Shown here: positions 2,615 to 61,883 of the stretch, in pieces
Position numbering within the stretch: position 1 is the first letter of the stretch
Layout of the letters: each line of letters starts with the position of its first letter
Notes under the pieces: generated by a model
What the model was told of the DNA's origin: nothing
The model's input: the letters and a program-made list of their open reading frames with translations, nothing else
The model's database searches: none
Position numbers and translations under genes: made by a program
DNA from: Bryoerythrophyllum caledonicum
Taxonomy: Eukaryota > Streptophyta > Bryopsida > Pottiales > Pottiaceae
Length of the DNA: 64,000 nt
Reading direction: 5' to 3'
NCBI GenBank assembly: GCA_963971425.1
Contig: OZ020517.1
Span: forward strand, 15,776,904-15,840,903

Positions 2615-5600
2615 TCACTATCCCAAATGGAACACACCTTATGGACGACAAGAGCTACAAAACACTCTATGGCACCCCTCATAAATTAATAAAAAGTGCA
2701 CTAAATATTGCCAAACAATTATTTTGTCACCCTCGATGTCTCCCTACATGCCCCAGCCATTGCATCGATCACGCCCCACCGTATACACTTAAAGAGGCAT
2801 ACATCATCAATCACAATGACAACCACCCCAACATCAACCCCCCATTAATTCCTCAAAACCCGCCACATCCACGATCATATGCTCCTCCGCCACATATATT
2901 AAAAAATCCTTCCATATACCCAATAAACAACATAACCGCGCACAAACATAGAAAATACATTGACTCCAACAACATAAGCAAACAATACACGTCATACCTA
3001 TGCCATTGGTTCCACAATAACGACACCTATGCCAAATGGCTCCCACAAAGAAATCTTTTTCCTTGGCACAACCCAAATACTTCCTTCCATAACACCGATA
3101 TCCTCACACAATACTACCTTAGAACTCAAAATAATTCTTACCTAAATATCATACAAATACACCACCCCCAAGCACAACCTCGAGATAAAAGATTTGTCAC
3201 GCCTCCTCTTATTATCCCCCTCCTTAATATCTTTACAACCGAATGCAATCCAGAAACGGATATTCGAGTATAAACCAATACAATCAAAATACAACAAGAC
3301 AATGCCCACATATACGAAGATAATGGTAGACATCTAATAACCATACCACTAGCTAGACTACAATGGTTGTGGAACCAATATCACAACGCACTACAAACCC
3401 CCATTAACATTGAACCAATACCCCAAACATTTGAAACCGAAATTGTTTGGCTATACCAAAGGTATAACTACCAAACACCCAAAAATGACCCCCTCAAAAA
3501 TGCACACTACACATTACCCGATCCTATTTTAGACTACCTTATTACATCTCTGAATATCACACATTCATACTTCTCATCCCCCGTTACATGCTCCACAAAA
3601 ATCTCAAAATTTTACTCTCCATTCGAACGAGATAAGATTTTTGGTTCTCTTGGAAAAGCTTTTGATTATAAGTGGAGTGGAATAGGCCTTGCACACCCAC
3701 AAAATGAAGAAGAAATACAAGAAGTAACACATTGGGCACGCCTAGCAGCAAAAAATGATCCCAACCACAACATCACCATTATTATTACTCTCGACACTCA
3801 TTGGTACCAAAACTCTAACCCACATTTAGGCCCATTCCCGGACTCTCACATCATCGCACTATTTGAAGCGGATTCTATGACTTACAAAGAACCGACTATA
3901 CCACCTCAAACTCAAGCACCCCGTCTTGAACCAGCAACTCTACGTATCTTATGTATACACCACCAAATAAGGGAGATAGGTACTCTTGAAAACCTCACTC
4001 ACCTCACTTTGCTAGCAAAAAATCTAAACATTAAGAAGGTATACACCGCAATTGCCCCTCCCACACCTATCTCAACCCGTGTAAACCGTAACAAAAAATG
4101 GTCTAAAACCCCCCACACAAACACATATGCACTACCAATTACCGAATTGAGCCCCCCACTCTCCAACCACCAAATGAATACCGACCTTAAATTTGACCCC
4201 AACTTTAGCTACTACACTGACGGCTCCTTCAAAGAACCAACCGAAATAAGCCCGGGACATTGGCACCGGGAAAAAGCCGGATATGGGATATACAATTCAA
4301 CCAAACAAATTAAATTAAGCAAACGACTACATGGACTTCAAAATATTCTAAGAGCCGAAATGATGGCTATACACAAAACCCTTAAGATAATCACCACTCA
4401 ATACCCAAACGAACCAGCTCACATTTTTACAGACTGCATAAATGTCTTATACCTCCTTAATACACACATAAAACACCCCACTCTACACAACAGTCATCCG
4501 GACAAAACTATCCTCACATCGATGGTTAAAATGCTCCAAAATCGCACACAAATCACTACACTCCACAAAGTCCGAGCTCATGCTAATATTGACGGTAACG
4601 AACAAGCTGACAAACTAGCCAAGGAAGGAAGAGAAAAAACCCACAAAAATGCCGAACACACATACCAACACGCCCACGCCACCCCATATTACTTTCATAG
4701 ATATGAATGGCCCTCTATGGGTGAAACTCCCGATAAAGGCCCCATAAGATTTTTGGATAAATACCTCAAAAAACATGACATTATTAATAACCTGGAAAAA
4801 CTCACAGAAAATTTCCCTAATATTGATAAATGGACCGGCAACCCAAACATTCACAACACATTGTCCAACAATTTTTGGAAAAACCCCATAATTACGGACC
4901 CACAAATCACATGCCTAATCAAATTCCGCACCGGACAATACATGGGAAATGCCCGCAAACAACTCTTCTTTGGAATAGAAAGATTCCCTACAATAACATG
5001 CCCAATTTGCAACACCACGGACCCAGACACATGGCTACATGTCTTACTCAAGTGCCAAAACCCCCATATACACTCACTCATTGTCAAAAGACACAACAAA
5101 GCCGTATGGGCTATTCGTAAACTACTTGTATCATCAAACAAATCCCGATGCTTCATTCTCATGAATGCCGGTACCTTTAATGACAATCCACAAGAAAATA
5201 CGGTTCCTCCTTGGCTTTTACCATGCACATGCTATACTCAAAGATGCCACTGTAATGCAAGATTCAAACCGGACCTATTATGCGTCAGAGGACTATCATA
5301 CAAAGACCCCCCACCAAACCACATTGACCCTAGTCTCACTATTCAATTCATTGAATTCACATATTGCAATGATAGATTCTCACCGGACACTATTGCAAAC
5401 AAAACAAATAAATACCAACCACTACTTGACGATATACAAACACTAGGATGGAAAGTAGACCCCCTCATTGTCATCACCGCGGGTGCTAGAGCCACCACCT
5501 TCATTCCCTCAATTACAACCCTTGAAGAAACATTTAAAATCCCCATCACTTCAATCAAAACCACATTTTCAAATATTAACACTATTGCAATTCAACATGC

Positions 5601-5676
5601 TATGTCGATACTTCTGCATAAACAAAAACTTGAAAACAACCAACCCCTTCCCGACGCCCTGTACCCCCCTCCATAG
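2615..5676 (+). pseudogene. LINE A ORF2, C-terminal half (RNase H, zinc-knuckle-like, REL-like domain)
   Basis: One frame runs from about 2615 to the stop at 5674-5676, interrupted by a single in-frame stop at 3271-3273; downstream of it 769 codons are open from 3367. The visible order is a linker region, then RNase H with YTDGSFK (about 4213), the Glu in RAEMMAIHK, IFTDCIN and HKVRAHANIDGNEQADKLA, so all four acidic residues are present. Next come a Cys/His segment, CPICN...WLHVLLKC, and a C-terminal region with RFKPDLLCVRG followed by IQFIEFTYCNDRF and a lysine/tyrosine-rich helix. That last arrangement resembles the PD...(D/E)-x-T core of restriction-like endonucleases. Codon usage is A/C-rich and G-poor. 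RNase H is secure; the REL-like call is inference. Confidence 0.85.
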
Positions 5677-5905: not shown

Positions 5906-5983
5906 GTTTTTCTCATATAAAGAATATATATTTTTTACATTACAGCGAGGGTCTGGGATTTTCCTGATGTGGGCGAAAAAGGG

Positions 5984-19856: not shown

Positions 19857-22440
19857 TTAAAGGAGGTCTTGTGTATCGGGAAGGGCTTGGTTGTTTTCAA
19901 TTTTGCGCTTATGTAGTAAAATGGACATGGCATATTGAGTAGCGATGGTGTTAATGTTTTTAAAGGTGGTTTTAATTGTTTCAATGGGTATTTTGAAGGT
20001 ATCTTCTTGAGTTTTCATAGATGGGATAAAGGTGGTGGCACGAGTGCCAGATGTGATTACAATAAGGGGGTCAACATTCCATCCAAGGGCAATGATGTCA
20101 TCAATAAGGGGTTGGTATTTATCTATTTTAGTTTGGATTGTTTCAAGGGAAAATCTATTGTTGCAATATGTGAATTCAATGAATTGAATGGTGTAGTCTT
20201 GGTTGATGTTATCGGGTGGTGGGTCATTATATGGTAAACCTCTAACACAAATGATGTCCGGTTTGAGCCTAGCATTGCAATGACACCTTTGGGTCACACA
20301 TAAGCATGGGAGTAGCCAAGGAGGGACCGTATTTTCTTGTGGATTGTTATTAAAGGTGCCGGCGTTCATTAGTATAAAACATCTCGATTTGTTGTAAGAG
20401 GTGATTAGTTTTTGGACTTCCCATACCGCTTTATTATGTCTTTTAACAATTAGAGAGTGTATGTGGTGGTTTTGGCATTTGAGTAGAACATGAAGCCATG
20501 TGTCAGGGTCCGTTAAGGGGCATATGGGGCATGTTATGGATGGGAATCTTTCTATTCCAAAGAAGAGTTGTTTGCGAGCGTTTCCCATATATTGGCCAGT
20601 ACAGAATTTGATGAGGCATGTTATTTGTGAGTCTGAAATGATGGGATTTTTCCAGAAATTAGTAGAGAGTTCATTGTCGATGTTGTTATTGTTAGTCCAT
20701 TTTTCTATGTTAGGGATATTTTCTGAGATTGTGTCTAGGTTGTTGTAGAGGTCTTGGGGGTATCTTCTTTGGAAGGCCAATCTTCTTTTTGAAAGTAGTA
20801 TGGGGTGGCATGGCCGTGTTCGTGTGGGTCTTTGGCATTTTTGTGTGTCTTTTCTCAGCCTTCTTTTGCTAATTTGTTTGCTTGCTCGTTGCCATCAATG
20901 TTGGCATGGGCTTTCACTTTGTGGAGGGTTGTGATTTGTGTTCGGTTTTGTAACATTTGGACCATTGACTTTAATATGGTTTGGTCGGGGTGGCTATTGT
21001 GAAGGGTAGGGTGGGTTATTTGAGTGTTAAGGAGATAAAGTGCATTTATACAATCGGTGAATATATATGCGGGTTCATTGTTGTATTTTGTTGTGATGAT
21101 TTGTAGTGTTTTGTGAATGGCCATGAGTTCCGCTCTGAGGATATTTTGTAGTCCATGGAGTCTTTTGGCTAGTTTAATTTCCTTGGTAGAATTATAAATG
21201 CCATAGCCAACTTTTTCTCTGCGCCAAGATCCCGGGCTAATTTGTTCTGGTGGTTTAAAGGAGCCATCGGTGTAATAATTATGTGCGGGGTTAAATTTTG
21301 GTGTGGTATGAGTCGGATAGTTTGGGAGAGGGGGCGGTGTGACGAAGTAGTTTAATGTATTATTGATACAGTTTAGTTTTGACCAGTTTTTACTTCGGTT
21401 TATGGGAGTTTGTATAGGTGTTGGTGGGGCCAGTTTTGTTTATAATCGGTGTATGTTTAAATTGTCTGTTATGGACGTAAGTTCGGCAAGTTGTTCTAGG
21501 GTGTCAAGGGTTTTATTTTGATGATGGATACATAGTATTTGTGATGTAGATGGCTCTATTCGGGGTTTTTTTAGCTCGGGTGGAAGGGTAGGTTCTTCGT
21601 ATGGTATCGAGTCTGCTTCAAATAATGCAATGATATGGGAATCTGGAAAAGGATTTGAGTGTTGGTTGTTGTTTTGGTACCAATTGTTGTTCGGTGTGAT
21701 GATGATTGTATTTGTGCTATGTGGATCATGTTTGGCGGCAAGTCGAGCCCAATGTATTGCTTGTTCCATTTCCTTCTCGTTGTGGGGGTGAGCTATACCA
21801 TTACCGATCCATTTGTAGTCAAAGGCCTTTCCCAAGGAACCGAATATTTTGTCTCTTTCATAGGGTGAGTAGAATTTTTTTAATTTGGTAGAACATGTGA
21901 CCGGGGAGGAAAAGTATGATTGTTTCATGTTAAAGGATGAGATTAGTGAGTCTAAAATGGGTGTAGGTATTGTGTATTGCGCATTTTTTAGGGGGTCAGT
22001 TTTTGGTATTCGGTATTTATACCTTTGGTATTGCCAAATTAATTCGGTTTCAAAGGATTGGGTCGTTGGTTCAATGTTCGTAGTTTGTAGTTTTGTATTG
22101 TATTGATTCCATAGCCATTGGAGTCGAGTAACGGCAATAGTGTGCAAGTGTCGGCCATTTTCTTCATATAGATGTGCTTGATTTTTATCTATTTTAATTC
22201 TGTTTGAGGATGTAAGGATATCATTTTCGGGGTTGCATTCGGCTGTATAGATGTTCAGGAGTGGAATAATTATGGGTGGTGTTACGAATCTTGAGTCTGA
22301 GAATTGTTCTTGGAGGTGGTGGGCTAGGATGATATTCGAGTAAATTTTGTTTTGAATTTTTTGGTAGTATTGTTTTAATTTTTCGATATTGTGTGTGGAG
22401 GTATTTGTGTCGTGTCGTGGAAAGAGGTCTCTTTGGGGAA
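19857..22440 (-). pseudogene. LINE B ORF2, C-terminal segment
   Basis: Three minus-strand frames (22440-21440, 21124-20855, 20780-19857) together cover the post-RT linker, RNase H remnants (AYIFTDCINALYLL, HKVKAHANIDGNEQANKLAKE), the Cys/His segment CPICPLTDPDTWLHVLLKC and the C-terminal region with RLKPDIICVRG and IQFIEFTYCNNRF. Frame breaks separate them, and some 100 bases near 20780-20855 are rearranged relative to LINE C. The copy is dead. Confidence 0.8.
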
Positions 22441-22453
22441 GCCATTTATTGTA
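22441..22453. repeat. 13-bp target-site duplication of LINE C (left)
   Basis: GCCATTTATTGTA, identical to 44994-45006. It lies in LINE B ORF2 and brackets the 22.5-kb LINE C insertion. Confidence 0.9.
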
Positions 22454-22748
22454 GAAGAAGAAGAACGCCGGTCTCCAAAGGAGGCCGGCCTGAATAAAGT
22501 GTTTGTTTGTTCTACTACTAAGACCATGCCCACTGGACAAGGAATTAGTAAGCTGGAACTACTTCCCTCTCTCGAGGGTAGACACTATGTAACAAGTAGC
22601 CAAAAGACCCACAAACCAATCAACCAACCAACAAATCACTAACCAAGCAACTAGCCAACGAACCAAACACAAACCAAGCAAGTAGTCAAAAACCTCAAAA
22701 CCAACTAGTCATGATAAATCAAGGCGGGGGGAGAATTTAAGGGGAGTC
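22454..22748 (-). other. LINE C 3' UTR with hairpins and TTC tail
   Basis: Read in the element's sense, the terminal hairpin is CCGGCCTCC-TTT-GGAGACCGG, pairing where LINE A has CCGGCCCCC/CGGGGACCGG. Upstream lies the longer hairpin around GTCCAGTGGGCATGG. The tail is TTCTTCTTCTTC directly against the target duplication. Confidence 0.8.
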
Positions 22749-25700
22749 CTATGTATCGGGGAGGGCTTGGTTGTTTTCGATTTTGCGTTTATGTAGAAGA
22801 ATGGACATGGCATGTTGAATAGCTATGGTGTTGATGTTTTTAAAGGTGGTTTTAATTGTTTCAGTGGGTATCTTGAAGGTATCTTCTAGAGTTTTCATAG
22901 ATGGGATAAAGGTGGTGGCACGAGCGCCGGATGTGATAACAATAAGGGGGTCAACATTCCATCCGAAAGCAATGATGTCATCAATAAGGGGTTGGTATTT
23001 ATCTATTTTATTTTGGATTGTTTCAAGGGAAAATCTATCGTTGCAATATGTGAATTCAATGAATTGAATGGTGTAGTCTTGATTGATGTTATCAGGTGGT
23101 GGGTCATTATATGGTAAGCCTTTAACACAAAGGATGTCCGGTTTGAGCCGAGCGTTGCAATGACATCTTTGGGTCATACATGAGCATGGGAGTAGCCAAG
23201 TGGGGACCGTATTTTCTTGCGGGTTATTATTAAAAGTGCCTGCGTTCATTAGTATAAAACATCTCGATTTGTTGTAGGAGGTGATTAGTTTTCGGATTTT
23301 CCATACCGCTTTATTATGTCTTTTAACAATTAGAGAATGTATGTGGTGGTTTTGGCATTTGAGTAGAACATGGAGCCATGTGTCGGGGTCCGTTGCGGGG
23401 CACATGGGGCATGTTATGGATGGGAATCTTTCTATTCCAAAGAAGAGTTGTTTACGGGCGTTTCCCATGTATTGACCGGTACGGAATTTGATAAGGCATG
23501 TGATTTGTGAGTCAGTGATGATTGGGTTTTTCCAGAAATTAGTAGAGAGTTCATTATCTATGTCATTGTTGTTAGTCCATTTTTCTATGTTAGGGAGGTT
23601 GTCTGAGATTGTATCAAGGTTGTTGTATAGGTCTTGTTTTTTGAGATATTTGCCCAAAAATCTAATTGGGCCTTTGTCGGGGGTATCTTCTTTGGAAGGC
23701 CAATCTTCTTTTTGAAAGTAATACGGGATAGCATGTGCATGTTTGTGTGGGTCTTTGGCATTTTTGTGTGTTTTCTCTCGGCCTTCTTTTGCTAATTTGT
23801 CTGCTTGTTCGTTGCCATCGATGTTGGCATGGGCTCTCACTTTGTGGAGGTTTGTGATTTGTGTACGGTTTTGTAACATTTGGACCATTGATGTTAGTAT
23901 GGTTTGGTCGGGGTGGCTATTGAGAAGGGTAGGGTGTGTTATCTGAGTGTTCAATAGGTAGAGTGCATTTATACAATCGGTGAATATATGTGCAGGTTCA
24001 TTTTTGTATTTTGTTGTGATGATTTGTAGTGTTTTGTCGATGGCCATGAGTTCTGCCCTGAGAATATTTTGTAGGCCATGGAGTCTTTTGGCTAGTTTAA
24101 TTTCCTTGGTAGAATTATAAATACCATAGCCAACTTTTTCTCTTCGCCAAGATCCTGGGCTAATTTGTTTTGGTGGTTTGAAGGAGCCGTTTGTGTAATA
24201 GCTGTGTGCAGAGTTAAATTTTGGCGTGGTGTGAGTTGGATAGTTTGGGAGAGGAGGTGTGACGGTGTAGTTTAATGTGTTGTTTACATAGTTTAATTTT
24301 GACCAGTTTTTACTTCTGTTTATGGGGGTTTGAATAGGTGTTGGTGGGGCCAGTTTTGTGTATAGTCGATGTATGTTTAAATTGTCTGTTATGGAGGTAA
24401 GTTTGGCAAGTTGTTCTAAGGAGCCAAGGGTTTGATTTTGATGGTGGACGCATAGTATTTGTAATGTAGATGGCTCTATTCGGGGTTTTTTTAGCTCGGG
24501 TGGAGCAGTAGGTTCTTCGTATGGTAGTGTGTCTCCTTTGAATACTGCAATGATATGGGTATCTGGGAATGGGTTTGAGTGTTGGTTGTTGTTTTGGTAC
24601 CAATTGTTGTTTGGTGTGATGATGATTGTATTTGTGTTATTTGGTTCATGTTTGGCGGCAAGTCTTGCCCAATGTATGGCTCGTTCTATGTCCTTTTTGT
24701 TGTGGAGGTGGGCTATACCATTACCTATCCATTTATAGTCAAAGGCCTTGCCTAGGGATCCAAATATTTTGTCTCTTTCATAAGGTGAATTTTTTTTTTA
24801 GTTTGATAGAACATGTGATCGGGGAAGAAAAATATGATTGTTCAATGTTAAAGGATGAGATTAGTGAATCTAAAATGGGAGTGGATATTGTGTATTGTGT
24901 ATTTTTTAGGGGGTCAGTTTTTGTATTCAATATTTATATCTTTGGTATAGCCATATTAGTTCGGTTTCAAAGGTTGGGTCGTTGGTTCAATGTTTGTAGG
25001 ATTTTGTAATTTTGTATTATATTGATTCCATAACCATTGGAGCCGAGTAACGGGGATGGTGTGTAAATGACGGCCATTTTCTTCATATAGATGTGCTTGA
25101 TTATTATCTATTTGAATTATGTTTGAGGTTGTAAGGATATCTTTTTCGGGATTGCATTCTTTGGTGTAAATGTTTAAGAGTGGGATAATTATGGGTGGTG
25201 TTACGGATCTTGAGTCTGAGAATTGTTCTTGGGGGTGGTGGGCTAGAATGATATCCGAGTACGTTTTATTTTGAATTCTTTGGTAGTATTGTTTCAGTTT
25301 TTCGGTGTTATGTGTGGAGGTATTGGTGTTGTGTCGTGGGAAAAGGTCTCTTTGGGGAAGCCATTTATTGTATGTATTATCATTGTGTTGCCATTGGCAT
25401 AAATATTTTATGTAGGTATTTTGTATGGTATTTGTGTCTATGTGTTGGATATGTTTATGGCGTATGATGTCTTTAATGGGATATGTGGTAGGATTTTTGG
25501 GGATGTATGTTGGGGGGCGGGGATGGTATGTATGTGGAGGGTTAGGGGGCTTAACTGGTGTGGGGATGTCTCTTGGGATGATGTTGTTGTTGAGGGTGAT
25601 GAATGGATTTCTAAGTGTATGAGAGTATGAGTGCATGTCACAAGGGGTATGACATGTATTGGGGTAATTAGGGTGGCAAAATAGTTGTTTAGCAACTCTT

Positions 25701-27974
25701 AGGGCACTTCTTATTAGCTTGGATGGGGTGAAATGGTAGGTTTTGAAGTCCTCATTGTTCATTATGTGTGTGCCGTTGGGCAATGTGATTTGGGTTAGTT
25801 CAAAAATATTTTTTGAGAGGAGTTTTTGTAAGAGCTTTTGGGAGATTTGGGCATTGAGTGTGTTGTGGTTTAGTGTTTCTTGGCGCCATAATATTTCTAG
25901 TGTTGTAGGATTAATGAGGAAGTTTGGGAGCGTACTTTTAAGGTGGGTTTTAACTATATGTTTTAATAAGAAGAATGTTCGTGTTATTGGGGATCTTATG
26001 CAGTCACTTTTTTAAATTCTGGGTATGTATTCTGCGCCACCGTATTGGGCAAGGACATATTGAGTTAATCCATTATATATTTTTCCAAATCTGCCTTTAT
26101 CGTTTAAGGCGTTTTGTAGTTGTTCTCCTATACATCGGAGATATGCGTTTTTGAGGGAGAAAGCTTCCAGTCCAAATAGATTATGTGGGAGTTGGGTTAT
26201 TGCGTTTGACATACATTTTGGTAGTCCACATATGGTTTTTTGTATGGCTATTATTTTTTGATCTAGTTTTTTGGTAGCTGGCATAGAATATGGTACACCG
26301 TAGAAGCTGTATGCCACACGTGGGCGTAGGATGGTATCAACCATTTTTATTTTTTGTTTCATGGTGGCCGGGCATGTTATTAGTTCTTTGCATTGTTTGA
26401 TGAGTTTCGTGGTTGTAGTGTGAATTTGGATTTTCCATTTTAGTGAGGGGACAAGATTTGTACCTAAGTATATGTATGGTTCATTTTGGTGTAGTATGGG
26501 GATCTGTTGGTTGCGGTAGTTGATGTTAGAGGCTTGTATTAGGGCTTTGAAAGTGGTAGGGTTCAGTTTAGATTTATTTGGGCATTCGGTAGCGGCACAT
26601 TTTGAGACACCTACGTCCATACCTGCCCATTCACAATATCTATCAATTTTATTGAGTTGTATTTGTATTTGTTTGATTTTGTTAGTTATGATGGCGAGGT
26701 CATCTGCGTATGCGGCAGAGTTTATTGTGACTTGTGATGTGCCAAACGTATATCCATTGTTGCCTCGTTCTAGCCATCTGAGCAATGGCTCCAAGAATAT
26801 AATGAATAGATATGGGCTAAGGGTGTCTCCTTGTATTATTCCTCTTTGTATGGGTATGGGTTTTGTTTTTCCAAAGTGTTCCTTAATATAGTAAGTGGAT
26901 GATTGGGAGTAGATGTTCCGTATGAGTGCAGTGGCTTCTTTTGGATAGCCAAGGTCCATCATTATTGTTAGTAGTCGAGCATGGTCTATTGAACCAAATG
27001 CGTTTTTGAAGTCGACATACAATATGTATATATCTTGGTTGGTGAATTTTGCGTCTTCTAGTGCGGCTATTATAGTTTGTATTTGTCTAGCGGTACTTCT
27101 CTCTACTCTAAATTCTTCTTGACTACCGTGTAAAATTTTGAATTTTTCACCGTATGAGGATAGTATAGAGGTGAGTGTACTAGTGAAGAGTTTGTATAAT
27201 GTGTTAGCTAATGCAATTGGTCTATGGTTGGGTAGTATAGATGGGTCACCTTTCTTGTATAGTAAAATTGTTGCACTTGATTTCCATGAGGTCGGTATTT
27301 GTTTTTGTTTATAGCAGTGAGAGAAGAATAGGAATAGTAGTTTATGAAATCTTGGGGGCATGTTTTTGGATATTGAATTTGGTATGCGGTCTGGGCCTGG
27401 GGCTTTGTTGTTACCAAGATTTTGAAGGCATGTGTCATATGTAGCTCTGTTAAGGTATTGATGTAGTGGAATTTCTGGATCACCTCTTTTGTCCAGGGTA
27501 TATCCGTCTAGGTCATGCCATGGATATTGGCGTACTGCACATGTACATTTGTTTTGATGTTGAGGTTGGTAGTTACATGTTTGTATTGTGGGTCTGTTGG
27601 TTTTTGTTTGTTGGTTGAATATTTCATTCGCAATGTCTTCGGGGCTAGTTAGAATATTATTAAATTGATCTATGATAAAGTCTAGTGGTGGAGATTCTAG
27701 GTTCTTAAAGACTTTCTTGTTAATTTTCTTAGGACTGATTTCATATAATTGTCTATATTTTGAGATGGCTTTTTTTATGTTATCTTGAGTGTGTTTTGAG
27801 GTTATTTTTCAGGCTTGTATGTTGGCCTTTTTTGCAATTAATGCGATATCTTTTATCCATGTATCATGGGGCATATCCGGGGGCGGTGGGGTGGAAATTT
27901 GGGTATGTTGTAGGGTTAGTAGTTCATTACATATGGGGTGGTTGCGCCATTGAGGATTAATGTTTACAAGTCTT
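22749..27974 (-). pseudogene. LINE C ORF2: reverse transcriptase to C-terminus
   Basis: Open segments on the minus strand are 27483-27208, 27361-26012, 25783-24956, 24603-24310 and 24047-22749, in more than one frame. The reverse transcriptase (27361-26012, 449 codons) is well kept: KKGDPSILPNHRPIAL, ILYVDFKNAFGSID (motif A), RGIIQGDTLSPYLF (motif B) and AAYADDLAII (motif C). RNase H motifs (IFTDCINALYLL, HKVRAHANIDGNEQADKLA), the Cys/His segment CPMCPATDPDTWLHVLLKC and the REL-like RLKPDILCVKG / IQFIEFTYCNDRF follow. Several frame breaks in the linker make the copy inactive as it stands. Confidence 0.85.
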
Positions 27975-34898: not shown

Positions 34899-37800
34899 CA
34901 CACCAATGATCATATTTGCATTGTTGGAATTTTGATCCACAAAGCATCCATGTGGTGGGACCCACCGTACCATACTTCACCTTTGCTCCAAAGTCATCGA
35001 ATGTTCCATTCAGGTATAAGTTATGATGATACGAAGTTATGGGAAAAAGTAGTTAATATGAACTTCGTGTGGGCCCCACATGTTGTCGTGATGAAATATC
35101 TTGATTTCTAATTTCATTATCTATTTTTGACCTTCTAATAGTGACTCAAACAAAGTACAATGTTCAAATGATGGATTATTGGATTTTTTAAAGTGTTTGT
35201 TGAAAAATATTATTAAATATAGATTCAATTTGGAAGTATATAAGGATCCAAGCTAACGCCGAGGATTCATTTGGTAGAAGAGTGTTTTGCTTCATAGGAT
35301 TTCCGCATAGACTTGAAGGTCGTTTTGTTTTTTTTTTTGAAGCGGTGGACGAAACAATGCGGTGGTTGATTGGCGTCCCGCGATCTTTGGGTTTTTTCTA
35401 TCAAGACATGTGCAAGGTATGTGAGCTTTCAAAGTTGTTGCGTAATTCCTTTGCGTAGAGGAAGAGGGGTCGAGGCCTCGACCCCTCCCTTGTGTTGTAT
35501 GGCCTTGTGTTGTATGGCAAGAGGGGTCGAGGCCTCGACCCCTCCTCTTTGTTGCATGGCAAGAGAGGTCGAGGGCCTCGACCCCTCCCTTTGTTGCATT
35601 GATTTTTCTTAACACCTAGAGTTTCTTGACAAAACCCGCCTTAAAAAGGTAGATTCTGTTGTAGGGTGTAAAGGAGAAACTCCGGGTCTTTCTTTCAAGT
35701 TTTGACCGTAGGATCTTGAACACGACTGAGTCATTAACCCCTAAAAGCCCAGGCATTTTCCCTCATGAAACACTCCAAAACTGCCATCATCAACAAGAGG
35801 CAACAAAATCTAACATTAAAGTCTAATTTTAGACTTTTAACCGTACAATCTTAAAATAGACACGTATATGAACTTACAATTAAAATTTGGTTGCAATCCA
35901 CCGCACGGATGTGGAGATTATAGCGTTTGAAGTGCAAAGAAAAGTTATTTTCCCCCCTTGCCCGGCAAGGTCAGCCTACTTTGACTAGGTATATCTTCTA
36001 GTTTTTACATTGAAATGTGATCAAATCTTTTACCAATATGACTTATATGTTGTTAGCTATTTGTGTGCAAAATTTGAGGTCAATTCGAGGGGTAATAGAT
36101 GTAGAAATATACACTTTAGTGAAAGGGGGTACAAAATGTTGACAATTACTACGTAAGTGATATGAAATTGTTTGTTTCATACAAGTTGTTGCTTTTGAGA
36201 ATCCCAACGGTGGAAACTTTCAATTTATTTTTTCACTAATTTTAGAGAAAAAAAACGAGTAAAAATAGTAAAATCCATAATTTTCATGAATATATGGAAT
36301 AAATAAAGCATTATGTCCCGTTGTTGACCGCCCTCGCAGCTGGACGGGGGAAGCGGGAAAAAAAAAAAAAAAAAAAGTTTTTATTTTTATTTTTTTTGGC
36401 GGGCCCGCTTCTGACGCGGGGTGCTGGCAGGCCAGCTGACGGCTGATTGATTGCTGTTTTTTTTTAAATTATTTTAACAACTCTTTTAATAATTTTCAAT
36501 GCTTTTTCTACTTGGACTTCGTGCATAGAAGTTTGGATTCCTTTCCTTGCTATTTTGTCCCAAAATTCTGCCCCTTTTTTCTCCTCAAATTGCATTGGTT
36601 GACATGGCTGCCCCAATAGTCTAGACTCCCCATTTTGACCTTTGAAGCCTAATAACTTTTGAACCAAAAGTCCAAAATCATTTTTGAAAAATTCCCCATA
36701 TAGATTTCTTAAAGGACAATGTAGTGTAAAATTTTCACAAGGATCGGAGTATTTTTTCCACTCAAAGGTACATGCCCAAAATCCAAAACGTACTTCCCAA
36801 GTACACTTGGGCTCTTAGGGGTTAACATGCCTGCAAAATTTCACATTTTTTGACCGTACGGATCGGAAGATTATAGCGTTTGAAATGTAGGAAGATGTCA
36901 TTTTCTTTAATGCTTTGAGAGGATCAACTGACTTTGACATCACTTGTTGTGAATTTTTTGCACTACACAATATGTTAATCTATTACAATCATGTTGAACA
37001 TGCAATCAACTCCTCGTTCACAAAATTTTAGAGGTTGGAGAGAGTTGTAGCATTTTCAAAAAAATTGTGCAAGGAGTGGAGGTTCAAAAACTATCAATTC
37101 ACGTTTTATTTTTTTGTGAACCTAATATGTTCTAGAATGAGAATCCGAATGGTCAATGGAAAGGTTTACACCACACAATGCCGTGGGGAAAATAAAAAAA
37201 GTAAAAACATGAAGATCACTAAGTTTTATGTGGAAAAGAAGAAGATTTTTTGGTACTTAGCCCGACAATGTGCGACAATGTGTGAAAATGTATGACTTGG
37301 ATTCATATGCTATTTCTCACTAAAGACAAGAGATTTTTCTTGACAACATGAAAGGAAATAATATTATTTGTCGTTGTTGAAAATATCACCTTCAATAGAG
37401 TGTCTTAGCAAAAGTTTTTGGAGTTGCCCGACAGGCCCGCTCTCCCCATTTGAACTTCAAAACCGTATAACTTTTTCATTAAATGTCGGATTGGGGAAAA
37501 ACTTGGACTCACACAAAGCTTTTAGTAATGTCCATCTACAATAATTTTTTGAAAAAGAATGCTAAAGATTGACACAAGAAGAACCTGCCCGGTCCTTCAA
37601 GGTTAATCTTGGTAATTTAGGGGTCAAGGGTAGTCCCTCAACAAATTTGCCCAGTTGTGTGCGAGGTAGGACTTTGGGAGAAGGCCATTCCTTCTTAATT
37701 GCAGAGTGTGTTCTTTGTGCTGGAAGGGCTCCATCAACTTATCGGTTCTAAGCGTCATTATCATCTGAAGTGGATGCAGAGCATCGGATGATGCTTTTTG

Positions 37801-38346
37801 TGGAGACCAAGGAGCATGTGGGTTGTGGCTTTATAATGGCAGAAATATTGCCATGTATGATATTGGAGGGTGAGACATAGAAAAATAGAGTAGAAAATAG
37901 TATTTAAAAGGATATAGAAAATGGTATGTAGACGAGAATTTATGCATATTATGAGATAGATATATATATATATATATATAAGGAAATAGAAATCTACGTA
38001 TCTTATATAAGACAGAATCTAGTGATGTTTAGTTCCTGATTGTGGATTTATTTTAGTTTTAGGAAGAGTAGATCAAAGTTGTAATATTTTTAGTATGCAA
38101 TGATATAATATATAAATGACATGAAAGTGGTTGCATAAGTTGCAAAATGTATGGAGAACAATTGAAAAAAGTGATGTTGTGTCTTACCTTAAATTAAACA
38201 ATGGCTTTTATGTATGTGGTTACCAATGTCCAATATCTCCGCACTCCCAAAAAAATTCATGGTTACATTGATTTGGATGAGTGAACTATATGCAGCGAAG
38301 GAGTGAAGTAAAATTGACCAAGTGCATATTTAGCGAATTCCATGTT
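34899..38346 (-). repeat. Foldback element, right arm
   Basis: Inverted partner of 27975-31416, nearly identical along its length. The 24-bp palindromes recur at 35464-35487 and 35521-35544. The TA microsatellite is at about 37958-37980. Inside 34899 the match to the left arm drops abruptly to a weak, patchy similarity. Confidence 0.95.
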
Positions 38347-38350: not shown

Positions 38351-40121
38351 ATGGTTTTTCGTATAGCATGGTATGTAGTAAGATGTTGTTTCCAGGTTTT
38401 AGAGAGTTTGCGTGGTAGGTATCCTCCTTGTTTGGATGTTCCTGTTTATCAATTGGGGTGTTGGTTGTGCTCTACAAGTTTGTTCTAGTGTGTTGGAGAT
38501 TTTTTTGATGATCGTATCTAGTGTTTCACATGCTTCTTCCCATTGTGCTTGTGATAGTTGAATGTTGTTTTCAAGAGTATTTATGAAGGGGTCTATTAGC
38601 ATGGATTGTTCTTCAAAGAATTTTGTATTGAATTTTTCTAAGTTGACTTTTGGAATAGGGTTTAGTATGCGTATAGTGTCATTATTTAGAGTTGTGGGAG
38701 TTCTATTTATTAAGGTATTATTTGGTATGTGTAAATGTATAGGTGAGTGGTCCGAGTTGAGGATAGCATCTTTGTTTGTTGTAGAGGTGTATTGTGTATT
38801 GTTGTTGGTATTTATATAAAATGCATCTATTAGACTCCAATCGTTATAATTATAGCCGCCTTGTCTAGAGAATTGTGTATCGGTTTTTATGTAGGTTAAT
38901 TTAAGTTTTCTCTGAAGTGTCGCCATTGGTGGTCGATGGTTTGGGGAGGGGTGTTATGATTTCCGTTTTGGCGTCCAATTAATGCAATATCTCTATTAAA
39001 GTCTCCGCATAGTACAAATGTGTGGTTCGGGTTGTTGTTTATTTGAGATGTAATAGTGTTTTGTATGTCGTTAATAAATCTAGTATCTTCGGGGTGCGAT
39101 GGTATATACATGTGGAGAACTAGCCATGGTTGTAGTGGGTAGTTAATGATTTTGATTATTTGAAGGTAAGGGGATATGTGCATTGGGGTGGGGATTTTTA
39201 TGATGTTGCCCGGGAAAGCATATTTTTTATGTATTAGTGTAAGGAGACCACCTCGTCCCGGTGTATATGGTCTTTGTTGTTGGATGCATCTTGTAAGTGC
39301 ATGTGTGTTGTTGAAAATGAGTTTACAGTTTTGAAATAATTTTTGTATGTATTTTGTGGATTTTGTGGCGGATAATTTTGTTTCTTGGATAGCTATAATA
39401 GCTGGTGGTGTGTTTGTATGTGTGATTAGAGTTTGTAAGCTAGGGAGGGCAGTGTTTAAAGAAGAGGCATTCCATGTGATTATATATGTATTTTCTTGAT
39501 TTGAGTTGTTGTTTTGGTTTTGTGGGAGGAAGTATGGGGGGGGGGGTGAGTGTATTCTGGTATTTGGTCGAGGCATTTGAGTGTTTCATTAATTAGGTTG
39601 TTGGGAAGGTAGGGGAATTTTTGTTTTATAATTTCTTGTGATGGTGGTATACGATGATTGTGTATAAAGTCATATAGTTCTTTATGTATTGATGTTTTAT
39701 TTTTTATAATATTTTGGTTATTTTCAATGAACGATATATATGGGTGTAGAGTGTTAATATGTCGTTCGGGGGGGTTTTGTAGGTTAGCAAGGGAGTTTAG
39801 TAATGTATTAGTCCATTGAGTTGTGTTAGGGTTTTGTGGGTTTAATATACAGTTACAATTATCTATGTGTGGGTGTATTGTAGTTACTATAGCGTATAAG
39901 ATAGGTGTTGAGGGGTGTTCATTTTTTTGTAGTATGTATTGGGTGATATGTGGGTGAGTGTTGGCATATAGCTGATGTAGTGTATGTGTGGATATTAGTA
40001 TAGGTGCAAATGTTTGGGCAATATGTCTGTATTCCGGTTGCAATTTTATTGTGTTTGGTATGAAATATAGTTTGGCGTTCTTTTTGTGTTGTGTTGGGTG
40101 TCTTTTTAGTATGTTTGGCAT
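38351..40121 (-). pseudogene. LINE C ORF2, N-terminal half with APE endonuclease
   Basis: Minus-strand frames 40121-39480, 39576-38896 and 38926-38399 overlap in different frames. After the Met at 40119-40121 comes a region of about 190 residues with no known domain, ending in a proline-rich linker. The APE-type endonuclease follows: TWNASSLNTALPSL, IAIQETKLSATKS (catalytic Glu), HMYIPSHPEDTRF, LCGDFNRDIALIG and LNSDHSPIHLHI. These are the expected N/E/Y/D-N/S-D-H signatures. It nicks target DNA in target-primed reverse transcription. Frame breaks make the copy inactive. Confidence 0.85.
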
Positions 40122-40172
40122 AGGTCCTGGGTTAGTTTCTATGTCTCCTCCTAGTATTAGTAGTAGTTTATA
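40119..40172 (-). other. 2A-like ribosome-skipping motif before LINE C ORF2
   Basis: Read on the minus strand, the codons directly upstream of the ORF2 Met give YKLLLILGGDIETNPGP and then MPNILKRHP. GDIETNPGP (40122-40148) fits the 2A consensus D-(V/I)-E-x-N-P-G-P exactly, and the Leu-rich run before it is also typical. The frame is continuous with ORF2 and stays open upstream for at least about 330 bases without an ATG. LINE B has the same motif at 56313-56339. Known family behaviour is co-translational separation between the final G and P. Confidence 0.85.
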
Positions 40173-40826
40173 ATATGGTGGTTTGTTATTATGTTTACCG
40201 GTTTTATGTTTTCTTGTTTGTCTTGTATACTTTTTTGCTTTGTTTTTTATTTTATCGTTGTATTGAGAGATGTAATTGTTATGTTTTCTCTCTTTTGGTT
40301 GGTTTTTTCTTGGCTTGGTTTTCTTTGCTTTATGGTTTTGTTTTGGTTTATTGTTTTGTATGATGTACTTGGTGATTTGTTTGGTGTTTGTTTGTGTATC
40401 TTGGTTTGTATTAATCTTATTGTAGGGATATTGGTTTGCATCTTTGTATCTTCTTCCGTGTGTGGTGTATGTTGTGTTTATTTTTATGTGTGTATATATT
40501 TTTAATGTAGTATTTTTGTTTGTGTACGTATATGTATTTGTATATATATTTTGAGACTTTGTATTTGTATGTATGTTGGTATTTGTATTGATATGTATAT
40601 TTGAATATGTATATATGTATACCCTTTTGTATAGAATGATGTATTTGTATTGAGTATGAAATTGAATACAATATTTGTACGTACCGTGTACGTGTGTATG
40701 TTTGTATCCTACTACATATAATGTATTAGTATAGTATCCGTGGGCTATATATGGCTTTAGTGTATGTATTCAGTATATCATATGGTCAATGGTATTTACG
40801 TTGTAGTCTTTGAAGTCTACATGTTT
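40149..40826 (-). other. LINE C inter-ORF region
   Basis: A/C-rich in the element's sense with TATACATA-type reiterations near 40500-40700. The frame leading into the 2A motif is Lys/Asn/Gln/Thr-rich. How ORF2 is initiated is not evident. Confidence 0.5.
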
Positions 40827-40937: not shown

Positions 40938-42437
40938 TCATGTTTTTGATCGGCATATTCTCGTCTCTTTCCTCATCCTCTTGTTGCTTTCCTCCATAAC
41001 CGACTCCACAATCTCCAACACTTCTTGCTTGGTGATGTTGGATGAGGGTTCTTGTATCTTGAAAGTCTCCACCGTGTTGACCATGGCGGCGTTAACGTCA
41101 TCAAACCCGAATGTCTTCACTTGTGCATCGGAAAGGGGTTCCGTTCCTTCGAGACTCCTCCGGTGTGGTGCAAACTCTATAAGGTACCCACCTATGGCAA
41201 ATGTTTTATTCACAAATTGCTTGTAAACAATAGGGTTAGTACAATGTACGTTGGCACTACCATTGTGCCTAGTTCCACACTCTTTATGGAACCAAATAGA
41301 TCTAGTGTTAGTATCACCAATGATTTTATGAATGGCATCACTCGTATCACACACACTCATAAAGATAGATAGAGGAGAGAGGGTAAGGGTTAAGGCATCC
41401 TTCTTTGCCTTTATCTCTTGTGAAATCTTCCCTCCGGTGATGTGTTTAGCTTGTATGACCTCGTGGTGTGTGGTGACTTGATGTAGTTGGATCTTTGTTG
41501 CTTGTTGAGGTGTGGTGGTCATGATGAACGCATGTGTGTCGTCAATGCCCTTCTGGACTCCTGTAATCTCGAACTCTTGCCCCCTTCGAAAACTATTCAA
41601 GAGGGCATCCTTGAAAAGGTTGTTGGCCGAAATGCCCTTCAAATTCTCACTCTTCACTTTGACAGAGAGGTTAGTATGCCTAGCAATATTTTGGTAGCTC
41701 TTGCAAACCTTACCAATGATGTTGTGACCATCTAGTTTAAGAATGAAGAGTCTAAGTCCCTTAAGCAACATAATTCCATCAATTTCGGGTTTTAGCAAGT
41801 GTAATTTAATTATTCCCGCCCACACACATTTTTTCCCCGCATTTTTGACACTTAAGCATTGGATTGAGATAGGGTCTATGAGATCATTTCCAAGTTTTAT
41901 GCCCATTACTTCTAGTCTTTTTGTGGCCATTGTCTTAATTTCGTCATGCATAATTTGGGAGGAAGGGGGTTCGAAATGAATTGCTATGTGAAAGTCTAGT
42001 GCCAAACATGTGGTGGTGTTGATGTTGATATCGAAGGGGAGTTGGGTGATGTTGTAGTGTTGTCCCTCCACTCCATTTCTTGTGCTTGGATAGAGTAATT
42101 GTGGGATGTGGGGGAATGCCGTCCTTGCCACACTTGCCTCCTTTGCCTCTTCTACCTTCAATCCTCTTGTTATCATGTCTTCGGCGGATTCTCCGCTATA
42201 GAGCTCTTGAAGTCCTTCTTTGATTGCAAGAGCCTCCATGGTAGGGTACCCCATCCAAAACTTAAAGGTCACACTTACCGGTTGAGAAATGTGTTGGGAG
42301 TTTTCACCTACTATGATATTCTTCATCTTCTTGCTTGAGGTAGGGGGTTCTTCGGTTTGTCTAGGAATCCTTTCTATAACCATTATGTCCTCGTCTTTTT
42401 TCTCATTGTAGGTGAGAAGTCTTTTGATGCTGCCCAT
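40938..42437 (-). CDS. LINE C ORF1 protein
   Basis: 499 codons from ATG 42435-42437. Motifs shared with LINE B and E: FKFWMGYPTMEALAI, EDMITRGLK, GQHYNITQLPFDI, IIKLHLLKPE. The C-terminal third (KKDALTLTLSPLSIFM, TSDAIHKIIGD, GSANVHCTNPIVYKQF, FAIGGYLIEF) has a beta-alpha-beta-beta-alpha-beta rhythm that resembles an RRM, so RNA binding is inferred. By comparison with LINE B, the original C-terminus continued in another frame to about 40827 as a coiled coil; here a frame slip near 40955 ends it at 40938 and a further stop follows. No CCHC knuckle is visible, unlike many plant L1 ORF1 proteins. Confidence 0.75.
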   Translation of the reverse strand: MGSIKRLLTYNEKKDEDIMVIERIPRQTEEPPTSSKKMKNIIVGENSQHISQPVSVTFKFWMGYPTMEALAIKEGLQELYSGESAEDMITRGLKVEEAKEASVARTAFPHIPQLLYPSTRNGVEGQHYNITQLPFDININTTTCLALDFHIAIHFEPPSSQIMHDEIKTMATKRLEVMGIKLGNDLIDPISIQCLSVKNAGKKCVWAGIIKLHLLKPEIDGIMLLKGLRLFILKLDGHNIIGKVCKSYQNIARHTNLSVKVKSENLKGISANNLFKDALLNSFRRGQEFEITGVQKGIDDTHAFIMTTTPQQATKIQLHQVTTHHEVIQAKHITGGKISQEIKAKKDALTLTLSPLSIFMSVCDTSDAIHKIIGDTNTRSIWFHKECGTRHNGSANVHCTNPIVYKQFVNKTFAIGGYLIEFAPHRRSLEGTEPLSDAQVKTFGFDDVNAAMVNTVETFKIQEPSSNITKQEVLEIVESVMEESNKRMRKETRICRSKT

Positions 42438-55628: not shown

Positions 55629-55978
55629 CACTAGTACAAAAGTGGGAAAAAAAACCGCACACATTTCATGTTGCGGTTCTTTTGACCACGCTGCCAGAAT
55701 TCTGTTATACTGTTCATGATTTGGGCTGCCGCGGTTTTTTGCTCATAAATTATTCAATTTTTTGAATTTTTAGGCGTGTAATATACTGTTGGAAGCGAAT
55801 TTTCAAGCCCTTTCCAATGGTGTATTACACGCTTAAAAATTCCAAAAATTGAAGAAGTTATGAGCAAAAACCCGCGGCAGCGCAAATCATGAACAGTATA
55901 ACAGAATTCTGGCAGCGTGGTCAAAAGAACCGCAACATGAAATGAGTGCGGTTTTTTTTTCCCACTTTTGTACTAGTG
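55629..55978. mobile_element. CACTA-type MITE, 350 bp
   Basis: Begins CACTAGTACAAAAGTGGGAA and ends TTCCCACTTTTGTACTAGTG, with 3-bp duplication ATA (55626-55628 and 55979-55981). CACTA ends and a 3-bp duplication are diagnostic of the CACTA/En-Spm superfamily. Almost the whole element is an inverted repeat (for example CCAGAATTCTGTTATACTGT on one side and its inverse on the other), so its transcript would fold into one long hairpin. It interrupts LINE B ORF2. Confidence 0.95.
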
Positions 55979-55981: not shown

Positions 55982-56312
55982 AGGTTTGTAATAATGTGTT
56001 AGTCCATGTAATTATATTCGGGTTTTGTAGACTTAGAAGACGGTTACATTCGTCTATGTTTGGGTGGGTGGTAATTACTAGGGCATATAAGATATGTGTT
56101 GATGGATGCGTATTTTTTTGTTGTATGTATTGGGCAATATTTGGGTGTGTTGTGTTGTGTAGTTGATGTGATATATGTGTGGTTTTTAGAAGGGGTGCAA
56201 ATGTCTGACCAAGGTGTTCGTATTCCGGTTGTAGTTTAATGGTATTTGGTATAAAGTATATTTTGGCGTTTTTCTTATGTGTTGTGGGATGTCTTTTTAG
56301 GATATTAGGCAT
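55982..56312 (-). pseudogene. LINE B ORF2, extreme N-terminus
   Basis: From Met 56310-56312 it reads MPNILKRHPTTHKKNAKIYF, then TIKLQPEYEHLGQTFAPLL, matching LINE C (MPNILKRHPTQHKKNAKLYF). The frame is cut by the CACTA MITE and resumes at about 55628. Confidence 0.8.
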
Positions 56313-56363
56313 GGGTCCCGGATTGGTTTCTATATCTCCACTTAGTAGTAATAGGGTTTTATA
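56310..56363 (-). other. 2A-like ribosome-skipping motif before LINE B ORF2
   Basis: Minus-strand codons give YKTLLLLSGDIETNPGP followed by MPNILKRHP. GDIETNPGP is at 56313-56339. The motif is identical to that of LINE C, while the preceding residues (TLLLLS versus LLLILG) and the third-codon bases differ, which suggests the peptide has been conserved by selection. Confidence 0.85.
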
Positions 56364-57265
56364 GTGTAGGGGTTTATTCTGTTTTTGGTTTATTGGTTTA
56401 TGTATATATTTTAGGGATTTTCTGGTTTTTGTGTTTTTGGTTTTAGTATTTTTGTTTATCCTAGTTTGTATTATGGTTGTTTGGAAATAGTTGTTTGGAA
56501 ATATGTGTTTGTATTATGGTGACTCTTTATGTGAGAGTTGTAGTGAGGCTATATTTTTTAATTAAGGGTGAGATTGTGGCGTATGTGTTAATGTTTGTGG
56601 TTTTGTGGTTTGTGCGTAAGAAGATGTGTATCAATGTTGGGTGGCATGTGGTTTTGGTAAATGCTGTTGTTTGTGGGAGTATGTTTATTGTGCTGTATAT
56701 GAATGTATAGGGTATGTTTTTGATATTCTTGCATGGTAGTTGTATGTGAGTATTGGTTGTGTGTATTCCATGTGTGTTTTCCCAAGAGATATTCATACCG
56801 TAATGGTATATATAGTGGCAACATTTATATGTGTGGAGGATTAAACTCCAACTCCAATACAGCCTTCCATCATGTAGTCTCCAAATCTTATATCTAGATG
56901 TGGGTGTGTTGTAGTAAAGGTATATAATATATCTATGGTAGGGGGTAGCTAGGGGGGTGAATATATAGACTGTAGTGAGGGAAGTTTGAGCTACAGAGAG
57001 AGAGAGAGGGAGTGGAGTATCACTAGTGACGGCAAGCTAGAGGGAGAGTAGTGTCTAGCTAGCTAGTGGAATGTGGAGAGTGCTATTATAATAGGCAAGA
57101 GGATATATCCTAGCAAGTTGTAGTGGAAGAGAGAGGACACATTGAAGGAGATTACAATGTATAGGAGAGTGTGTGGTGCTAGTGGAGAGAGGTGGGGGAG
57201 AGGAGTGAGAACCTTGTTCACCCTTGTGTCTTCAGATTGGTGATATCTTTGTTCGTGGTCCTTGG
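56364..57265 (-). other. LINE B inter-ORF region
   Basis: A/C-rich in the element's sense near ORF2, with a GAGAGAGAG tract (56996-57010) and CTAG reiterations nearer ORF1. No conserved coding segment was seen apart from the frame entering the 2A motif. Confidence 0.5.
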
Positions 57266-58930
57266 TCAATCCACGTTTGAGTGGTCTTCTAGGGCTGGGA
57301 TAGTTGGTGGTCGCGATCCTGTGATATGTTGCATGGCCATTAGTGCAGAGGCCATTAATTGTTCAACATTTGAGAGTTTCGTCTGTAGCTCACTGGTGCG
57401 GTTGTCCATGTAGGCCCTTGTGTCCTTGATGATGTCCTCTCGTAGGATAGAGAGCTCTTGGCACAGTCTCTTGTTACCTGAATCAATAATAGAGGTAATT
57501 TCTGACCTGGTGATGCCTGCAGGAGTGGAGGTGACTTGGAGGGACGCCACCGTGTTTACAAGTGCTTTGTTGATGTCATTGAAGCCCCACTTCTCCAACA
57601 TGACGGTGGAGGGTGGGTCATCACCTTCAAGGCTGCAACGGTGGCGAGAGATCTCTACTGGATGTCGCCCTATAGTGAAGGTTTTGTGTAGGAATTGGCG
57701 GTAGATGATGGGGTTAGGGAATTGCACATTGGCACTACCATTGTGTTTTCCTCTCTGTTGCCTATGGAACCATAGGAAGATCACATTTTTGGCGTCAAAG
57801 AGTTGGTGTATGGCATCCGTGGTTTCAGCCACGCTCATCAGGATGGGGAGCTGAGATAGAGTAACCGTGAGTGCATCCTTCTTGGCTCTATCAGCAGGAG
57901 AGAGGGTTCTAGAGCTGCTAGCACGAGCTGGTATCATCTCATGGTGTGTGGTAATCTCGTGGAGTTCGAATTTCTTGGCCTGGTGCGAGGTTGGAGCAAC
58001 TATAAATGCATGCGACTCCTCCTGTACCTTTTACACATCTGTGACCTCAAATTCTAAGTTTCTCAAGAAACTATTTGCCACTACATCTTGGAAAAGGGTG
58101 TGAGCAACAATGCCTTGGAGGGTTTCACTCTTGATTCGCACGGATAGGTTCTTTCGTGCCACCGCATGGAAGGTTTTGCATACTTTTCCTAAAAAGGTTT
58201 GTCCTAAGGGATCCAGGTATAGGATGAAGTAGCGGGTTCCTCTGAGGAGGGCAATGGCATCTACCTCTGGTCTAAGGAGATGAAGTTTAATGATACCTGG
58301 CCATACCCCCTTTTGTCCCTCCTTCTTGACCCCTTTGCATAGCACGGCAATAGGGTCCATTAGGTTGGTGCCTAATGGTATGCTCATATGCTCGAGCCTA
58401 GTAATGACTAGTCTCTTCACATCATCATGGTACATAGGATGCGGTGGCAATTCGAAGTGAATTGCGACATGGAAGTCATATGAAAGTCGAGTAATAGGGT
58501 TTGTAGGGATATCAAAGGGTGCATGTGTAAGGTTGTAGTGTTGCCCCTCGATGTTGTCGTTGCGCACCGAAGAATATAATAGTTGTGGAATCCTTGGGTA
58601 AGCCACAATGGCGCCTAGAGCCTCCTCTGCTTTATCTTTGGATACTCCACGAGTGATCATGTCTCTAACACTCTCCCCACTGAACAGGGGCTCCGGTCCT
58701 ACATCCATGGCAAGCTTCTGCATAGTGGAAAAGCCCAACCAAAAATGAAAAGAGGAGAAGTCAGGGATGGAGACATGGATGGGGGTGGGATAATTACCTT
58801 TTGCTTTCTTGGATGGGGTTGGGCCTTCACTTGCCATTGGGGCTGATCCTTCACTCTCTATGGTCTTCATAACTTCTGGGTGGGGGTTTTCAGTGTCCAT
58901 GGCATCCATCGTCGTTGTGGAAGGGGTCAC
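57266..58930 (-). pseudogene. LINE B ORF1
   Basis: One frame from ATG 58928-58930 to the stop at 57266, interrupted by a single in-frame stop just after 58031 (EFEVTDV). Motifs: FSSFHFWLGFSTMQKLAM, RDMITRGVSKDKAEEAL, GQHYNLTHAPFDIP, IIKLHLLRPEVDAIALLRG. The RRM-like part reads LTVTLSQLPILMS, TTDAIHQLFD, GSANVQFPNPIIYRQFL and FTIGRHPVEI. The end, LCQELSILREDIIKDTRAY onward, is a predicted coiled coil that could drive oligomerisation. This copy shows the full-length ORF1 architecture, about 555 residues. Confidence 0.8.
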
Positions 58931-61882: not shown

Positions 61883-61883
61883 A

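What the first reader, a model, noticed from the sequence alone, without database searches (positions are those of the whole stretch)
40119..40172. 2A ribosome-skipping peptide at the start of ORF2 in a plant LINE
GDIETNPGP, a perfect D-(V/I)-E-x-N-P-G-P motif with the usual Leu-rich lead-in, sits directly before the ORF2 Met in LINE C (40122-40148) and LINE B (56313-56339). The peptide is identical in both while synonymous and flanking bases differ. 2A sequences are established in trypanosome L1Tc/ingi and sea-urchin LINEs, but I know of no well-described case in a land-plant LINE. The frame upstream is open without an ATG, so it may be a leader peptide, or a way to release ORF2 protein from an upstream product.
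Basis: partly seen in the sequence, partly recalled or inferred. Interest (0 to 1): 0.88.

Follow-up and report, generated by a model that had tools for sequence, protein, structure and literature searches.

The report
Ribosome-skipping peptide in a jumping gene
Two old copies of a jumping gene, probably from a plant, share an intact virus-like "2A" sequence that normally makes the ribosome release one protein and carry on with the next, placed just before the enzyme protein; it looks selected and genuine, but its activity has not been tested.

Summary
On the minus strand GDIETNPGP lies directly before a Met in both copies that keep this region (40122-40148, 56313-56339) and nowhere else in six frames. 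The copies differ there at five third-codon positions, all synonymous. One copy reads LLLLSG-DIETNPGP, a major StopGo group in a 2026 survey. The protein after it is under purifying selection (dN/dS about 0.15, like APE and RT); the leader before it is much less conserved. No in-frame ATG lies in either leader. My reading: ribosomes enter upstream without AUG and the 2A sheds the variable leader, so ORF2 protein starts at Pro-Met. Skipping and entry are inferred. The element is no ordinary plant LINE: RNase H, a PCIF1-like domain, a possible chromodomain and a restriction-endonuclease-like tail accompany APE and RT, resembling the Dualen group. Plant origin has only weak support. The paper listings I saw named no 2A in a plant LINE, but the key surveys (Odon 2013, Rao 2025) could not be read. 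New variant of a known kind; two broken copies are the whole sample.

The parts
40122..40148 (-). 2A/StopGo core GDIETNPGP, LINE C
40149..40184 (-). leucine-rich lead-in KPPYYKLLLILG, LINE C
40149..40769 (-). in-frame A-rich leader, 207 codons without stop or ATG, LINE C
39547..40121 (-). ORF2 N-terminal region after the 2A (starts MPNILKRHP), LINE C; dN/dS 0.157 and 0.154 against B
38899..39585 (-). APE endonuclease (PF03372), LINE C, in another frame from a C-run on
26015..27808 (-). reverse transcriptase (PF00078), LINE C beyond the insert
24959..26011 (-). region with a chromodomain-like stretch (weak, PF00385 E 0.11), LINE C
22752..24797 (-). end of the PCIF1-like region, RNase H (PF00075), CCHC and RLE-like tail, LINE C
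40941..42437 (-). ORF1, LINE C (no Pfam family above its cut-off)
56313..56339 (-). 2A/StopGo core GDIETNPGP, LINE B
56340..56375 (-). leucine-rich lead-in KPLHYKTLLLLS, LINE B
56340..56513 (-). in-frame leader, 58 codons without stop or ATG, LINE B
55989..56312 (-). ORF2 N-terminal region after the 2A, LINE B, up to an inserted hairpin element
58034..58930 (-). ORF1 first part, LINE B
57269..58030 (-). ORF1 second part, read as a separate ORF, LINE B
3274..5673 (+). third copy (A): PCIF1-like (PF12237), RNase H, CCHC, RLE-like tail
21443..22558 (-). fourth copy (D): PCIF1-like domain (PF12237 E 1.2e-11)

Best explanation
A two-ORF non-LTR retrotransposon family carries a leucine-rich StopGo (2A) peptide at the N-terminal edge of ORF2. 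Ribosomes begin upstream of the 2A without an AUG, in an A-rich, G-poor leader (by internal entry or a non-AUG start). The 2A makes them release the leader peptide after NPG and resume at Pro, so ORF2 protein always begins Pro-Met-Pro-Asn whatever precedes it. Shown: the motif, its frame with the conserved N-terminal region, synonymous-only change, no in-frame ATG in the leader. Inferred: skipping activity, upstream initiation, and the trimming role.
For: Core in 2 of 2 copies, in frame with a region under purifying selection (dN/dS 0.157 and 0.154, beside APE 0.146 and RT 0.146 and 0.144). Five synonymous and no amino-acid changes in nine codons, so it is probably read as protein and the AUG after it is not the only start. 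Copy B's lead-in LLLLSG names one of four major hexapeptide groups, and p12=D with p11=G fits (PMC12846837 section 10). C's leader is open for 207 codons; with the 2A it is a run of 216, reached by 0 of 500 shuffles, yet in the last ~99 bases changes fall alike on codon positions 1, 2 and 3 (10, 14, 14 of 33 each), as expected of a sequence that is shed. The ATG after the 2A has C at -3 and C at +4, a poor start context by general knowledge.
Against: Only two copies, both broken. The APE is in another frame than the N-terminal region in both. In B the in-frame run is 67 codons with the 2A, no longer than the shuffle mean of 77, and its longest run (169 codons, 0 of 500 shuffles) is in another frame. 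The leaders hold many short tandem repeats, which lengthen open runs beyond what dinucleotide shuffles allow for. The leader is not free of constraint: dN/dS 0.505 over 58 poorly aligned codons, 0.369 over the last 15, 0.443 over the last 12. No in-frame CTG, GTG or TTG in either leader, ACG twice in C only; ATA (12 and 6), AGG (1 and 1) and in C also ATT, ATC and AAG occur, none tested as a start. Copy C has LLILGG, off the (A/S/C)G ending. At the N-terminal region's rate about 3 amino-acid changes were expected in the nine codons (my arithmetic), so zero is only mildly unusual. No translation data.
Confidence: 0.66

Rival explanations
1. ORF1 and ORF2 are joined in one product by splicing or recoding over the intergenic stretch, and the 2A separates ORF1 protein from ORF2 protein.
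For: ORF1 lies upstream in both copies. ORF1 stop and ORF2 are in the same frame in C (arithmetic on coordinates). An AG dinucleotide lies just before the 2A core in both copies.
Against: Three further stops lie between in C, and ORF1 stop and ORF2 are out of frame in B (arithmetic). No alignment was found for the intergenic stretch next to ORF1. A LINE must keep full-length RNA. Splice sites were not scored.
Confidence: 0.12
2. ORF2 starts at the Met after the motif, and the 2A is a relic of an ancestor in which it worked; no skipping occurs now.
For: Met is kept in both copies. No in-frame ATG, CTG, GTG or TTG in the leaders.
Against: Five of five changes are synonymous (about 0.0009 if untranslated). 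The Met has a poor start context.
Confidence: 0.14
3. The 2A and the following ~200 residues form a separate small ORF, not joined to APE-RT.
For: N-terminal region and APE are in different frames in both copies.
Against: The offset differs between the copies (+2 in C, +1 in B) and both change at C-runs, as two unrelated slips would give. The same dN/dS on both sides says only that both are coding.
Confidence: 0.1
4. Chance resemblance to a 2A.
For: Short motif.
Against: 0 in 30 shuffles; exact core plus class-typical lead-in, and the core kept in both diverged copies.
Confidence: 0.02

Closest known systems
2A-bearing LINEs: trypanosome L1Tc and others, sea urchin families (Heras 2006 and Odon 2013 as cited in PMC4981915, passages; clades Rex1, Crack, L2, L2A, CR1 and Ingi recalled)
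   Same: LINE protein with an in-frame D(V/I)ExNPGP
   Different: Keeps a separate ORF1 (recalled: 2A goes with one-ORF elements in animals); other ORF2 domains; host probably a plant
Dualen/RandI group (PMC4640811, passages)
   Same: APE, RNase H and an RLE-like tail with RT in one family
   Different: RLE only by motif here; PCIF1-like and chromodomain-like stretches; whether known Dualen elements have a 2A could not be tested
Land-plant L1 and RTE LINEs (PMC9033089, passages: the two LINE superfamilies it names for plants)
   Same: Probable host; APE and RT
   Different: RNase H keeps the histidine that the archaeal-like plant L1 type is said to have as R; RLE-like tail; 2A
Viral StopGo motif groups (PMC12846837; abstract, section 10 and passages)
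   Same: LLLLSG hexapeptide in copy B, p12 = D, p11 = G
   Different: In a retroelement; the paper reports almost no motif in plant viruses

Membership tests
2A/StopGo peptides | core D(V/I)ExNPGP | tested here: met
   DIETNPGP in both copies
2A/StopGo peptides | class-typical upstream hexapeptide | tested here: met
   B LLLLSG exact; C LLILGG only approximate
2A/StopGo peptides | in frame with a downstream coding region | tested here: met
   N-terminal region dN/dS 0.157
2A/StopGo peptides | translated from an upstream start | tested here: inconclusive
   synonymous-only change supports translation; no start codon identified
2A/StopGo peptides | peptide-bond skipping in translation | not testable with these tools
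   needs an assay
APE-type non-LTR retrotransposon | APE plus LINE-type RT | tested here: met
   PF03372 E 3e-9, PF00078 E 7.7e-29; R2 and L1 chains among the best in the PDB
Dualen/RandI | both APE and RLE | tested here: inconclusive
   APE met; KPD...E...KY pattern in 3 of 3 copies with the tail but no PDB relative and no usable model
Dualen/RandI | RNase H | tested here: met
   PF00075 in copies A and C
Dualen/RandI | position in the RT tree | not tested
   no reference clade sequences at hand; bits: three R2 sequences 107-109, 8c8j 72, four L1 sequences 70-71, two further chains 54-58
plant L1 | archaeal-like RNase H with R for H (PMC4640811 passage) | tested here: not met
   H of copy A aligned with the H of human RNase H1 in the VPGH/VRAH stretch

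The most novel reading that the evidence does not exclude
A plant dual-endonuclease, Dualen-like LINE, carrying PCIF1-derived and chromodomain-like modules, uses AUG-independent entry in an A-rich leader and a StopGo peptide as an N-terminus trimmer, so that ORF2 protein has one fixed start however translation began. It would be a natural StopGo user in plants and a new answer to how LINEs translate a second ORF.
Probability: 0.28. Interest if true: 0.82.

Novelty: new variant of a known kind. Interest (0 to 1): 0.6.

Why it matters
A 2026 survey (PMC12846837, abstract and passages) found no evidence that plant viruses use StopGo although it works in plant cells; a plant retroelement that keeps one under selection would be a natural use there. 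It would also make a long-open question testable: how LINEs start their second ORF. The element itself, with APE beside a restriction-endonuclease-like tail and unusual extra domains, does not fit the two LINE superfamilies that PMC9033089 names for land plants.

Tried and rejected
No relatives came from public collections: viral contigs with the RT, the 800-residue C-terminal ORF, a 2A DNA pattern and the 2A/N-terminal region; genome contigs with the RT and an RT core fragment. These hold viral and prokaryotic sequence, and the peptide patterns reach close relatives only, so absence there says little. No RNA family at gathering score and no tRNA by ARAGORN. Two structure predictions failed (mean pLDDT 30.4 and 32.3), so no fold search was run. 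A profile of the RLE-like tail found only a phage tail sheath at E 0.056. For the region with the chromodomain-like stretch two unrelated chains scored above CBX4 (E 0.15 and 0.35 against 0.71). Programmed frameshifting at the C-run was set aside because the offset differs between the copies. A shared upstream start codon was sought and not found among ATG, CTG, GTG, TTG and ACG. Ten further ORFs had no Pfam family at E 0.1. My first motif scan had a pattern that hid one unrelated NPGP; one search replaces it. My first count of the open leader (216 and 67 codons) included the nine codons of the 2A; 207 and 58 are without it.

Full report
OBSERVATION. GDIETNPGP lies on the minus strand at 40148-40122 and 56339-56313, each followed at once by Met. 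These are the only two D[VI]E.NPGP places in six frames; NPGP alone occurs at four. Shuffles give 0 in 30. The nine codons differ at five third positions, all synonymous. If the stretch were untranslated, five synonymous changes of five would have a chance of about 0.0009 (20 of 81 single changes are synonymous).

WHAT IT BELONGS TO. Self-comparison shows a LINE family in pieces. Copy C runs from ORF1 (42437-40941) through the 2A to the APE, is broken at 38346 by a 10.4-kb insert (27975-38346) whose 3.5-kb arms are inverted copies 99.5% alike, and goes on from 27973 to 22749. Copy B (58930 to about 44990) is cut by a hairpin element at 55644-55962 and by a gap of about 6.5 kb. Copies A (2554-5676, plus strand) and D (22558-19857) lack the 5' region, and an ORF1 piece at 397-4 is cut by the window's edge. 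A tblastn of the 2A and N-terminal region against the window finds C and B and nothing else below E 0.9. ORF1 of B and C are 53% identical over 268 residues and match no Pfam family at E 0.1.

ORF2. Domains found: APE (PF03372, E 3e-9), RT (PF00078, E 7.7e-29), RNase H (PF00075, E 2.3e-13 and 7.2e-11) and, above its curated cut-off in copies A and D, PCIF1_WW (PF12237, E 5e-10 and 1.2e-11). The solved PCIF1 (6irx) matches weakly by sequence (E 0.12 and 0.41); where that chain has NPPF, which I recall as the catalytic motif, copy D reads HPHN. Between RT and this domain lies a chromodomain-like stretch in copies A, B and C; its support is PF00385 at E 0.11 and CBX4 at E 0.71 and 0.76, below two unrelated chains, so it is suggestive only. 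The tail holds CPxC...H...C...RHN and KPD...E...K..KY in 3 of 3 copies, a pattern I recall from restriction-like endonucleases of R2-type LINEs. No profile hit or usable model backs it. The RT scores 107-109 bits against three R2 sequences, 72 against 8c8j, 70-71 against four L1 sequences, and 54-58 against two chains that I recall as silkworm R2. Dualen is described as encoding both APE and RLE, and RNase H is reported in Dualen/RandI (PMC4640811, passages). I call the element Dualen-like, not a Dualen.

SELECTION. Between B and C, dN/dS is 0.157 for the 108 codons after the 2A, 0.154 for the next 79, 0.146 for APE, and 0.146 and 0.144 for two parts of RT. The N-terminal region is therefore coding and as constrained as the enzymes. 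In the last ~99 bases before the 2A, changes fall on codon positions 1, 2 and 3 alike (10, 14, 14 of 33 each), against 0, 0, 5 of 9 in the 2A and 21, 18, 38 of 108 after it. Against a wholly free leader, dN/dS is 0.505 over 58 poorly aligned codons, 0.369 over the last 15 and 0.443 over the last 12. About 500 bases of leader are 53% identical over 460 columns, without a third-position excess (28 of 56, 22 of 56, 19 of 57). The sharp constraint begins at or just before the 2A. ORF1 is too diverged at synonymous sites for a ratio.

LEADER. C: 207 in-frame codons without stop or ATG; with the 2A a run of 216, longer than any of 500 shuffles. B: 58 (67 with the 2A), not unusual; its longest run, 169 codons, is in another frame and is longer than any of 500 shuffles, by a little (longest 164). 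The leaders hold many short tandem repeats, so these counts overstate the case. In-frame CTG, GTG and TTG are absent from both; ACG occurs twice in C; ATA, AGG and others occur and were not tested as starts. From ORF1 stop to the Met, 2A included, there are 816 and 953 bases, 50% and 38% A, 10% and 9% G.

MECHANISM. Shown: core, frame, lead-in, selection. Inferred: ribosomes enter upstream without AUG, StopGo releases the leader, and ORF2 protein starts Pro-Met. This explains an open but poorly conserved leader before a sharply conserved 2A. Copy B's LLLLSG names one of the four major hexapeptide groups among viral StopGo sequences, and a tested example of motif 6, said to resemble LLLLSG, was active in vitro (PMC12846837, section 10). 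The same paper notes that full FMDV activity needs more than 30 residues (passage), so the upstream start should lie at least that far back.

FRAME. N-terminal region and APE are in different frames in both copies, with the change at C-runs and with different offsets (and arithmetic). I read this as two separate slips or assembly errors; both copies are dead elements in any case.

HOST AND NOVELTY. The kinase at 7552-9150 matches 6ka4 best (134 bits), then 9p9u, an EGFR entry (128), then 6lba (125) (60 of 2325 shown); 6ka4 and 6lba I recall as Arabidopsis MLKL proteins. That is a hint of a plant, no more. A review names L1 and RTE as the land-plant LINEs (PMC9033089, passages). Paper listings showed no 2A in a plant LINE: 5 of 5 papers listed, 20 of 1,783, 25 of 57, 12 of 608, 15 of 23, 1 of 1, by title and start of abstract. 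I saw passages of PMC4981915, PMC11512398, PMC5009743, PMC10641963 and PMC11291117. Odon 2013, Luke 2014 and Rao 2025 are not held, so priority is open.

Noticed in passing
3274-5673 (+), 21443-22558 (-): PCIF1_WW domain (PF12237) inside LINE ORF2 in two copies; where the solved PCIF1 chain has NPPF, copy D reads HPHN.
   Followed up: partly
24959-26011 (-), 44992-45612 (-), 2554-3273 (+): Chromodomain-like stretch (YPIxxI..HKH...YLCxW...KW) between RT and the PCIF1-like domain, weak scores only.
   Followed up: partly
22752-23510 (-), 19860-20615 (-), 4900-5673 (+): CCHC-RHN and KPD...E...K..KY tail like a restriction-like endonuclease, beside an APE in the same family.
   Followed up: partly
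39500-39580 and 55300-55420 (-): Both copies change frame at a C-run between the N-terminal region and APE, with different offsets.
   Followed up: partly
27975-38346: 10.4-kb insert in LINE C with 3.5-kb inverted arms about 99.5% alike and a possible 5-bp target duplication; no Pfam hit in the three ORFs tried.
   Followed up: partly
55644-55962: Hairpin element (two 151-bp arms, 93% complementary, 17 bp between) inserted in ORF2 of LINE B.
   Followed up: partly
5978-8120 and 61883-64000: 2.1-kb direct duplication, 90% alike, reaching into the kinase ORF at 7552-9150.
   Followed up: no
49594-50194: Diverged tandem array of 64-bp units, about 9 copies.
   Followed up: no
9537-9548 (+): An unrelated ERNPGP inside the ORF at 9174-10580, without the D(V/I) of a 2A.
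   Followed up: no
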